Positions 11,451 through 42,396 of a stretch of 58,116 nucleotides of DNA are shown piece after piece (the first letter of the stretch is position 1; every line of letters starts with the position of its first letter). This DNA is from Brevundimonas sp. GTDB taxonomy: Bacteria; Pseudomonadota; Alphaproteobacteria; Caulobacterales; Caulobacteraceae. Below the pieces are notes generated by a model. That model searched no databases. It saw only the letters and a program-made list of their open reading frames with translations, and was not told where the DNA came from. Where the stretch lies: the NCBI RefSeq assembly GCF_019636155.1, contig NZ_JAHBYB010000013.1:1-58116 (forward strand), read 5' to 3'. A program made the position numbers and the translations under genes.

Positions 11451-11598
11451 CGGCCTTAGCTACCCCTCTCATCCCTCTCCCATCGGGAGAGGGTCAGGAA
11501 CGCCAACTGCGCGCGCCAGGGAACCCAACCCCCTGATCCCGCGCGCCAATCCCGCCGCCAACATCATCTCACACGCCTGGGCTGAGAACGGCCCTATA

Positions 11599-11906
11599 CT
11601 CCCCAGGTCCCGTCGCATGGGGAGGCCGCGAGGCCAGCGACTTCGCGGCGGCGGGAGCGGAGGAAGCGGGGCTGTGCGTTGTGTCACTCACACGCATGGG
11701 CCTGCGGTCGTCGGATCGGACAGTCATTGGCGACGGGTCCGGCGACCGAGGGAGGGCCGAGGGGGTTACTCTGGCCGTTCCGGGACCGGGTCGTTGGCCC
11801 GGCCCGCCCGCCGCGGGCCACCGGGAGTAGCCGAAAAGATCGGCGCCCGCCCCGAGCTCGTGGAAACCCTCCGTGCGGAGCGTCAGACCTCTCGCCGAAC
11901 ACGGCA
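11599..11906 (+). ncRNA. Candidate structured RNA, copy A (no known family recognised)
   Basis: This is the 308-nt core. Predicted helices on the plus strand are: GGCC-GCGA-GGCC with a GNRA tetraloop (11624-11635); an 11-bp hairpin with one bulged U (11672-11699); a 10-bp stem CGGTCGTCGG/CCGGCGACCG (11705-11714 with 11739-11748); GGCC/GGCC (11755-11776); a 9-bp stem with one bulged A (11781-11806); GCCGA-AAAGA-TCGGC (11830-11844); and CTCC-GTGC-GGAG (11869-11880). Against copy B, pairs 11786/11802, 11787/11801 and 11790/11798 covary. Single changes at 11677, 11697, 11757 and 11869 exchange Watson-Crick and G.U pairs. A TATACT box (11595-11600) precedes it on the same strand. Transcription is untested. 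Confidence 0.6.
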
Positions 11907-11995
11907 CTCATACATCCCCGCCGGGCGATGGCCCGACGCTCCGCCGCCTTCCCATCACTTCGCAGCATCCGCTGGCGCGGAGGCGCCGCCAATTC

Positions 11996-12084
11996 CGCCC
12001 TCAAGCCGCGAGCCGCCGCGCGGCGAGCATAGGGCAGGCCATTGCCCTCAAGCCGCGAGCGACCGCGTCGCGAGCATAGGGCAA
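11996..12084. repeat. Pair of about 43-bp palindromic units (REP-like)
   Basis: Two units (11996-12038 and 12041-12084) of the form GCCCTCAAGC-CGCGAGC-...-GCGAGCATAGGGC follow each other. Related paired units lie at 19342-19431 in the opposite orientation. Arms pair GCCCT/AGGGC with an inner GC-rich palindrome. They lie inside the composite element and account for its extra length over copy B. Confidence 0.75.
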
Positions 12085-12092
12085 CCAACAAG

Positions 12093-12243
12093 CCTTCTCC
12101 CCTTGTGGGAGAAGGTGGCCCGCGCAGCGGGTCGGATGAGGGGGAGGCCTGATCCAGGCTGATCATCAGACGCCCATCGCGCGGACCCAGCCCCCCTCAT
12201 CCGTCAGGCTTCGCCTGCCACCTTCTCCCACAAGGGGAGAAGG
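12093..12243. repeat. 150-bp palindromic module
   Basis: The module begins CCTTCTCCCC-TTGTGGGAGAAGG and ends with its inverse, CCTTCTCCCAC-AAGGGGAGAAGG. Two GATGAGGGG/CCCCTCATC arms flank a variable centre. Equivalent copies lie at 41489-41640 and, in coding sequence, at 46499-46648; a half copy lies at 12393-12450. Confidence 0.85.
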
Positions 12244-41488: not shown

Positions 41489-41640
41489 CCTTCTCCCCTT
41501 GTGGGAGAAGGTGGCAGGCGAAGCCTGACGGATGAGGGGTCGCGCGGGCCCTGGCCATCATCCGACGCTAACCCCACGGGCCTGAGAGACCCCTCATCCG
41601 ACCCGCTGCGCGGGCCACCTTCTCCCGCAAGGGGAGAAGG
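41489..41640. repeat. 150-bp palindromic module
   Basis: Starts CCTTCTCCCC-TTGTGGGAGAAGG and ends CCTTCTCCCGC-AAGGGGAGAAGG, with GATGAGGGG and CCCCTCATC inside. Same family as 12093-12243 and the ribD insert. It abuts the tail of the structured core (4 bp away). Confidence 0.85.
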
Positions 41641-41730
41641 AAGAATTGGCGGCGCCTTCGCCAGCGGATGCTTGCGAAGCTCGGGAAGGCGGCGGAGCGT
41701 CGGGCCTTCGCCCGGCGTGAGGAAACAAGA

Positions 41731-42038
41731 TGCCGTGTTCGGCGAGAGGTCTGACGCTCCGCACGGAAGGTTTCCACGAGCTCGGGGCGGGCGCCGATCT
41801 TTTCGGCTACTCCCGGAGGCCCGCGGCGGGCGGGGAGGTCCAACGAACCCCTCCCGGAACGGCCAGAGTAACCCCCTCGACCCTCCCTCGGTCGCCGGAC
41901 CCGTCGCCAATGACTGTCCGATCCGACGACCGCAGGCCCGTGCGTGTGAGTGACACAACACACAGCCCCGCTTCCTCCGCTCCCGCCGCCGCGAAGTCGC
42001 TGGCCTCGCGGCCTCCCCATGCGACGGGACCTGGGGAG
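41731..42038 (-). ncRNA. Candidate structured RNA, copy B (no known family recognised)
   Basis: The 308-nt core aligns with 11599-11906 without gaps and with 11 differences. The covarying helix here is CGGG-a-GGGGU with ACCUC-CCCG around the conserved loop TCGTTGG (copy A: CCGGG with CCCGG). All other helices of copy A are kept, three of them with U.G pairs in place of C-G. The TATACT box is conserved on the minus strand just upstream (42037-42042). Transcription is untested. Confidence 0.6.
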
Positions 42039-42396
42039 TATAGGGCGGTTCCCAGCCCAGGCGTGTGAGAGGGGGTTGGCGATGGGATTGATGAGCGGGG
42101 TCAGGGGGTTGGGTTTCCTGACGCGCGCAGTTGGCGTTCCTGACCCTCTCCCGATGGGAGAGGGAGGGGCCCGCCGCGTGGCGGCGGGAGGGTGAGGGTC
42201 GGGTGTATGCGATCCGCCGCCAGCCGACCCTCACCCTTTCGCGCAAGTCTGATCGCCTGCGGCTCTCAGGCGCTCAAGCCCTCTCCCAACGGGAGAGGGT
42301 GAATATGTGTATGGCCGAGGGTCGGAGCCTGGGGCCAGCCCCCTCAACCGCCTGCGGCGGTCCCCCTCTCCCCGGTGGGAGAGGATCAAGCGGGTG

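What the first reader, a model, noticed from the sequence alone, without database searches (positions are those of the whole stretch)
11599..11906. Possible new structured RNA: 308-nt core with three covarying base pairs between two inverted copies
The cores at 11599-11906 (+) and 41731-42038 (-) align without gaps. Six of the 11 differences fall in one helix and hit exactly three pairs: 11786/11802 (C-G to G-C), 11787/11801 (C-G to G.U) and 11790/11798 (G-C to U-A). The helix also keeps a bulged A and the loop TCGTTGG. Four more differences (11677, 11697, 11757, 11869) swap Watson-Crick and G.U pairs. Only 11820 is unexplained. Other helices, including a GNRA hairpin, are invariant. Neutral drift would not place changes this way. 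I do not recognise RNase P, tmRNA, SRP, 6S or a known riboswitch.
Basis: partly seen in the sequence, partly recalled or inferred. Interest (0 to 1): 0.95.

Follow-up and report, generated by a model that had tools for sequence, protein, structure and literature searches.

The report
New multicopy structured RNA in Caulobacterales
The two matching stretches belong to a folded RNA of roughly 350 nucleotides, for which we found no earlier description, that bacteria such as Brevundimonas and Caulobacter carry in many scattered, well-preserved copies; what it does is not known.

Summary
The reading, a new structured RNA, holds and is stronger than claimed, with corrections. The RNA is longer (about 11607-11953): a closing stem and a long-range helix lie beyond 11906. 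It is a family, not a pair: 14 full copies in this genome, matches in 88 of 121 genomes of the genus, up to 39 matches per genome in Caulobacter. On 70 copies 98.7% of 3371 base-pair cells pair, 35 of 50 pairs change on both sides, 0 of 500 shuffles as high; G.U outnumbers A.C 370 to 12. A long-range helix and a pseudoknot also covary. No relevant Rfam match; none in the plasmid, phage and viral searches made. Copies lie at many intergenic sites; one is an insertion with an empty site; two of three comparable sites show within-genome homogenisation; a fixed-site copy is conserved beyond its flanks. Most likely a standalone trans-acting RNA; role and transcription are unproven. Main rival: the RNA of a selfish mobile element.

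The parts
11595..11600 (+). TATACT, a -10-like box just before the inferred RNA start
   Evidence: sequence. A TANNNT hexamer lies in the 20 nt before the RNA in 32 of 69 copies, against 3, 14, 0 and 3 of 69 at four control offsets; 37 of 69 lack it. The sigma-70 consensus scan found no full promoter. Transcription is inferred.
11607..11953 (+). the RNA (about 347 nt): inferred start at GTCCCGTCGC, inferred end at the 3' strand of the long-range helix
   Evidence: conservation limits in L119 vs L130, 14-copy alignment, tails
11607..11616 (+). P1 5' strand, pairs with 11648-11656
   Evidence: 0 of 2000 permutations reach the observed pairing
11619..11626 (+). long-range helix, 5' strand GGGGAGGC; pairs with 11946-11953 GCCTTCCC and crosses P1
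   Evidence: 41 of 43 distinct strand combinations have at least 7 consecutive pairs; 0 of 2000 permutations
11627..11647 (+). P2 hairpin (11627-11633 with 11641-11647), apical loop CCAGCGA
   Evidence: 3 of 2000 permutations, the weakest of the helices tested
11657..11663 (+). P3 5' strand GCGGAGG, pairs with 11868-11874 CCTCCGT
   Evidence: 0 of 2000 permutations
11672..11753 (+). variable insert between 5' and 3' domains (3 to 272 nt among 69 copies)
   Evidence: it holds the length differences among own copies
11754..11945 (+). 3' domain, model R1/R2 (helices H1 to H8)
   Evidence: cmsearch hit; pair counts
11830..11844 (+). H5 hairpin GCCGAAAAGATCGGC
   Evidence: all 4 pairs change on both sides across copies (helix 7)
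11875..11944 (+). closing stem 11875-11884 with 11935-11944, enclosing hairpin 11894-11905, linker and hairpin 11923-11934
   Evidence: helices 8, 9, 10
11889..11894 (+). 5' partner of the loop pseudoknot with the loop of hairpin 11923-11934; only 3 consecutive pairs in this genome
   Evidence: 55 of 68 copies form at least 4 consecutive pairs, 0 of 5000 permutations
11906..11920 (+). G-poor linker, unpaired in the model, hypervariable between copies
   Evidence: 135 distinct linkers among 176, 3.5% G (that pattern does not match this genome's own linkers); own copies
41683..42030 (-). second copy in the window, same anatomy, -10-like box at 42037-42042, linker about 41716-41731

Best explanation
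This is a family of standalone RNA genes in Caulobacterales for which no description was found. Each copy is probably transcribed from a promoter just upstream and yields an RNA of about 350 nt whose fold is closed by a helix between its 5' domain and its 3' end, with a second pseudoknot in the 3' domain. The RNA acts in trans as a folded product, most likely the core of an RNA-protein particle or a regulatory RNA, because no gene recurs broadly beside it. The G-poor linker held open next to the pseudoknot is the likeliest contact site. Copies arise by insertion at new intergenic sites, become alike inside a genome, probably by gene conversion, and are kept because the folded RNA is useful. 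Shown: conserved structure, strand, multicopy dispersal, insertion at one site, within-genome likeness at two of three comparable sites, conservation beyond flanks at one fixed site. Inferred: transcription, gene conversion, trans action, protein partner, benefit to the host.
For: Structure: 98.7% of 3371 cells paired, 35 of 50 pairs with two-sided change, 0 of 500 shuffles, slid partners pair in only 34-48% of cells; similar on an alignment not fitted to a model. Strand: 370 G.U against 12 A.C cells. Long-range helix, pseudoknot, P1, P3. Standalone: among neighbours of 51 copies in five genomes the matches between genomes were five pairs of sites that look orthologous, one pair at 71% identity that may be, and one distant match (L117/L100, 32% over 400 aa). 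Constraint: own copies differ per pair by 0-3% in the 75 columns from the -10 box on, by 0-12% in the rest of the RNA up to the linker, and by 13-24% in the 100 columns before, although both belong to the repeat. Fixed site: L119 vs L130 is 92-100% identical in each 50-nt window wholly inside the RNA; its 14 differences lie in the variable insert (8), the linker (4) and at two positions where G.U and G-C exchange. Likeness within genomes: orthologous-site copies 86.5% and 89.3% identical against 93-97% for the best own-genome copies.
Against: No transcript was seen here. Matches per genome run from 0 to 39, and 33 of 121 genus genomes gave none (strict filters), so it cannot be essential everywhere. 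Insertion polymorphism and flanking repeats fit a mobile element equally well. 37 of 69 copies lack a TANNNT box; no full promoter and no terminator on this strand were found by the consensus scan. The linker and insert are as variable as the upstream DNA. At a third shared site (L054/L129) one copy is closer to a copy of the other genome than to its own. The pseudoknot is weak in this genome.
Confidence: 0.55

Rival explanations
1. The RNA is the working part of a selfish, non-autonomous mobile element: copies with a good fold are the ones that are copied to new sites, and the host gets nothing.
For: Insertion: the ~694-bp unit of L113 is replaced by 22 bp in G028 and in G015; 4 of 8 G004 sites shared with 12 of the 13 G028 sites compared, two of them on both flanks; 1-18 matches per matching genome in the genus and up to 39 in a sister genus; REP-like repeats flank copies. 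Multicopy motifs in inconsistent orientation are filed as mobile/repeat candidates by the authors of PMC11109978 (section 13 read).
Against: No transposase was noticed among the few neighbour genes read by eye, and no family recurs broadly (neighbours were not scanned with profiles); no Y1 transposase (PF01797) in this genome, while the control search rings in 5 of 14 genomes; no match in phages or plasmids with three different copies; the RNA core drifts less than the upstream part of the same repeat; a fixed-site copy is constrained.
Confidence: 0.32
2. The family is a set of sibling antisense RNAs: a common scaffold presents a different seed (the linker) per copy, so each copy controls other messenger RNAs.
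For: Linker hypervariable, unpaired in the model and nearly free of G (135 distinct of 176, 3.5% G), flanked by nearly invariant motifs.
Against: Between orthologous copies 4 of about 15 linker positions changed, no faster than the sequence around the RNA, so drift of a spacer explains it; no target test was made.
Confidence: 0.1
3. The fold matters as single-stranded DNA (for instance a recombination or packaging site), not as RNA.
For: Multicopy, intergenic; G.T wobbles are possible in DNA too; the authors of PMC11109978 raise a DNA role for their repeat motif.
Against: A multi-domain fold of about 347 nt with two pseudoknots is unusual for a DNA site (judgement from general knowledge); a -10-like hexamer precedes 32 of 69 copies, above four control offsets.
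Confidence: 0.03

Closest known systems
ROOL, GOLLD, OLE, raiA large bacterial RNAs (PMC12286853, passages seen)
   Same: large, elaborate, function poorly understood
   Different: no Rfam match; not found in the phage and plasmid collections, and no model hit in the viral stretches fetched; many dispersed copies per genome
HEARO / omega RNA of IscB-IsrB elements (343-nt example and IsrB link seen; the rest recalled)
   Same: similar size; copies can stand without their protein (recalled)
   Different: no Rfam match; no nuclease noticed among the neighbour genes looked at
Mobile/repeat sequence candidates such as MRSC-65-2 (PMC11109978, section 13 read)
   Same: many copies, no consistent orientation to genes, covariation
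   Different: MRSC-65-2 is one long stem in diverse phyla; this is a multi-domain fold found in our samples in one order only
RNase P RNA, 6S RNA, tmRNA
   Same: similar size range, structured, separate genes
   Different: this genome has an ordinary RNase P RNA (282.9 bits) and 6S RNA (56.8 bits), one match each, elsewhere; no tmRNA in the window

Membership tests
RNase P RNA (RF00010) | covariance model score above the gathering threshold | tested here: not met
   no hit at the copies; the genome's only match is at G000:C37:48688-49102
6S RNA (RF00013) | covariance model score above the gathering threshold | tested here: not met
   no hit at the copies; the genome's only match is at G000:C37:94182-94342
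tmRNA | tRNA-like domain and tag reading frame, as found by ARAGORN or Rfam | tested here: not met
   ARAGORN finds only tRNA-Pro in the window; no Rfam match
HEARO / omega RNA | covariance model match | tested here: not met
   no Rfam match
HEARO / omega RNA | IscB/IsrB-type nuclease beside some copies | tested here: inconclusive
   no broadly recurring neighbour among 51 copies of five genomes, with 11 left and 1 right neighbours not called; neither neighbours nor genome were searched for IscB
Mobile/repeat structured element | multiple copies at different sites, polymorphic insertion | tested here: met
Mobile/repeat structured element | associated transposase or integrase | tested here: inconclusive
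   no broadly recurring neighbour; PF01797 absent from this genome; other transposase families not searched
ROOL / GOLLD / OLE / raiA | covariance model match | tested here: not met
   no such Rfam match
Protein-coding gene | conserved reading frame or protein family | tested here: not met
   four overlapping ORFs have no Pfam family; one plus frame is open in all 14 own copies, whose lengths differ by 3, 8 or 9 nt, but no frame is open in all ten relatives tested
Structured RNA | compensatory covariation across species | tested here: met
Structured RNA | transcript of the predicted size in cells | not testable with these tools
   no expression data

The most novel reading that the evidence does not exclude
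A new class of large bacterial RNA gene, kept like ribosomal RNA in many copies made alike by gene conversion, that spreads through genomes by insertion and works in trans as the core of an unknown ribonucleoprotein or as an RNA catalyst specific to Caulobacterales.
Probability: 0.35. Interest if true: 0.95.

Novelty: categorically new. Interest (0 to 1): 0.87.

Why it matters
A pseudoknotted RNA of about 350 nt with up to 39 matches per genome has no Rfam family, in a group that contains the model genus Caulobacter. It would join a short list of large bacterial RNAs of unknown function, in hosts that are easily grown and genetically tractable (general knowledge). Its copy number, within-genome likeness and insertion make it a test case for whether a structured RNA can be both a spreading element and a useful gene. 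The covariance model and the secondary structure make it directly testable, for instance in existing Caulobacter RNA-seq data.

Tried and rejected
Protein coding: ORFs of 112 to 254 aa overlap the copies; four of them have no Pfam match, one has no viral relative, and no frame is open in all ten relatives tested, though one is open in all 14 own copies. Known RNAs: Rfam at gathering and permissive thresholds; RNase P and 6S lie elsewhere. Plasmid or phage origin: no blastn match with three different copies. Viral contigs: an exact pattern that does not fit this genome's own version gave 0 stretches; two further short patterns gave 6 and 1 stretches, none of which holds a match to model R2 at E up to 1. 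Viral contigs were not searched with the model as a whole. Common neighbour gene: no gene recurs broadly; a wider tblastn shows some sharing between loci of different species and genera (for example the gene beside L099 in L157, L158 and L222) whose orthology I did not resolve. A tblastx comparison of flanks gave noise from high G+C shadow frames and was discarded. REP-type transposase: not found. Element ends: at L113 both ends carry an inverted GCACGCCT (by eye), at L114 none was seen, so no terminal repeat is claimed. The weak match in G218 (E 9.6e-4) is not counted as a member.

Dropped rows and limits: 11 of 80 copies had no locatable 5' domain; 6 of the other 69 were left out of the long-range test because the tail was out of register or lost; 2 of 70 rows were left out of the pseudoknot test. 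Searches over more than 40 genomes scored few candidates per genome under strict filters, so their counts are lower bounds. A3 was built from 70 loci that I chose out of those held (8 of 14 own copies among them) and is fitted to the model; the structure was drawn by me from such sequences. In one search one of five measures (pair types) was reached by 53 of 500 shuffles. In the tree only 5 of 17 inner branches are well supported.

Literature: ten searches; among the listings seen no paper names this RNA, but the library lacks most subscription journals and supplements were not available. Passages were seen of PMC11109978 (plus its section 13 in full), PMC4287350, PMC11005374, PMC4117421 and PMC12286853. 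PMC5988900, PMC8632094, PMC2864571 and PMC6429828 were searched for terms only and held none of them.

Full report
Observation. The two cores are as described: 308 nt each, gapless, 11 differences at the listed positions, six of them in three pairs of one helix. The plus strand folds better than its shuffles (z -2.6), the minus strand does not (z +0.5). Rfam finds nothing relevant at the copies.

The family. The own genome (2.79 Mb, 40 contigs) holds 14 full copies, 89-100% identical to the query over 342-351 nt, and one fragment at a contig end. A DNA search matched 19 of 61 genomes, own included, all of one genus. A covariance model of the 3' domain (R1) matched 88 of 121 genomes of the genus (74 of 103 of good quality), with 1 to 18 matches per matching genome. 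In the order 34 of 249 genomes and 4 of 48 genera matched, one of the four resting on the weak G218. In genus g13 a second model (R2) matched 21 of 25 genomes with up to 39 matches. g13 is Caulobacter: contigs of G255 and G283 have the exact lengths of contigs of Caulobacter sp. BK020 and BP25; likewise G004 is Brevundimonas halotolerans and G028 B. poindexterae. I checked 24 of the 120 with R2 and all 24 hold a match, two cut by the contig end. A genus of another family (g17) has 13, 8 and 6 matches in three genomes and none in a fourth with R2 (R1 gave that fourth one weak hit); its copies have the same helix order and their own versions of the long-range helix. In a class-wide sample 3 of 385 genomes matched, all of the window's genus. 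Three different copies found nothing in plasmids and phages; pattern scans of viral contigs gave no stretch with the RNA.

Structure. I drew helices by comparing sequences and counted them on a MAFFT alignment of 12 sequences: 97.3% of 600 cells paired, 24 of 50 pairs changed on both sides, 0 of 500 shuffles as high on four of five measures, 53 of 500 on the fifth, the number of pair types. On 70 copies aligned to the model: 98.7% of 3371 cells, 35 pairs with two-sided change, covariation score 0.436 against 0.141 for shuffles and 0.037-0.088 for slid partners. The fit to the model favours the structure; the two-sided changes themselves are in the sequences. G.U cells number 370 and A.C cells 12, which marks the plus strand as the folding strand. 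Beyond the model, the 5' strand GGGGAGGC (GGAGGGC, GGAAAGGG, CGAAGGG in others) pairs with the 3' end (GCCTTCCC, GCCCTCC, CCCTTTCC, CCCTTCG): 41 of 43 distinct combinations have at least 7 consecutive pairs, 63% of mismatched combinations do too, and 0 of 2000 permutations equal the mean. As its 5' strand lies inside P1, this is a pseudoknot that ties both ends together. A second one links the segment before GUCGAA with the loop of the last hairpin (CTTC/GAAG, CTGC/GCAG, CGGA/TCCG, TTT/AAA): 55 of 68 copies have at least 4 pairs, 0 of 5000 permutations; the eight own-genome copies tested have 3. P1 and P3 pass (0 of 2000 each), P2 weakly (3 of 2000). The part between the domains varies from 3 to 272 nt; the linker between ACGGTA and CCGG is hypervariable and almost free of G.

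Gene, not debris. A TANNNT hexamer lies just before the RNA in 32 of 69 copies, against 3, 14, 0 and 3 of 69 at four control offsets; B. halotolerans and most B. poindexterae copies lack it. Hairpins fold just downstream in several of eleven copies. The consensus scan found no complete promoter and no terminator on this strand. So transcription is plausible, not shown. No neighbour gene recurs broadly, though some sharing between loci was left unresolved. Among own copies the 75 columns from the -10 box on differ by 0-3% per pair, the rest of the RNA up to the linker by 0-12%, the linker window by 21%, and the 100 columns before the box by 13-24%. L119 and L130 are single divergent copies beside the same gene in B. 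halotolerans and B. poindexterae: each 50-nt window wholly inside the RNA is 92-100% identical, windows outside 21-88%, and the downstream flank 82% in DNA, its protein 84%. The 14 differences inside the RNA are in the variable insert (8), the linker (4), or at two positions where G.U and G-C exchange.

Spread and likeness within genomes. The L113 copy of B. halotolerans lies between two genes that read like flp pilins (name recalled, from the sequence). In B. poindexterae and in G015 the same place has 22 bp instead of about 694 bp; G014 has no copy there, G104 has one, and G084 was not resolved. Four of eight B. halotolerans sites are shared with B. poindexterae, two on both flanks, two on one. 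At the two sites shared on both flanks the copies resemble their own genome's copies (93-97%) more than each other (86.5%, 89.3%). At L054/L129 the pair is 83.5% alike; L129 is closest to its own genome (96.3%), but L054 to a B. poindexterae copy (88.2%). L119/L130 is a separate lineage, 96.4% alike and about 75% to the rest. The two helix haplotypes among the 14 own copies also suggest exchange between copies. Gene conversion is my inference.

Interpretation. That this is a real structured RNA family without an Rfam entry I hold at about 0.97. That it acts in trans as a host-useful folded RNA I hold at 0.55, mainly because the core of the own copies and a fixed-site copy are constrained. The rival that it is the working RNA of a selfish element (0.32) explains the insertions and the copy numbers but needs a mover that I did not find. 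The variable linker invites an antisense-seed reading, but its rate of change does not exceed that of its surroundings.

Noticed in passing
window about 11476-11495 and 12093-12115; also around 41500-41640 and 42150-42290: REP-like dispersed palindromes (CCTTCTCCC...GGGAGAAGG...CGGATGAGGGG and CCCTCTCCC...GGGAGAGGG) flank both copies and appear beside other copies of this genome and of relatives; no Y1 transposase was found in this genome.
   Followed up: partly
window about 11990-12082: Two tandem units of the kind CTCAAGCCGCGAGC...GCGAGCATAGGGCA follow the first RNA copy; other own copies carry different numbers of such units.
   Followed up: no
L119 and L130: A second, divergent lineage of the RNA (about 75% identical to the main one), one copy each in the sets fetched from B. 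halotolerans and B. poindexterae, at what looks like one orthologous site.
   Followed up: partly
L097, L106, L084, L089, L171, L191, L239: In seven loci of Caulobacter-type genomes a gene for the same PfkB-like kinase (97-99% identical proteins; name by inspection) lies in the fetched stretch with a copy, so this may be an ancestral position.
   Followed up: partly
L113, L251: The insertion of L113 separates two tandem genes (73% identical over 85 aa) that read like flp pilins.
   Followed up: no
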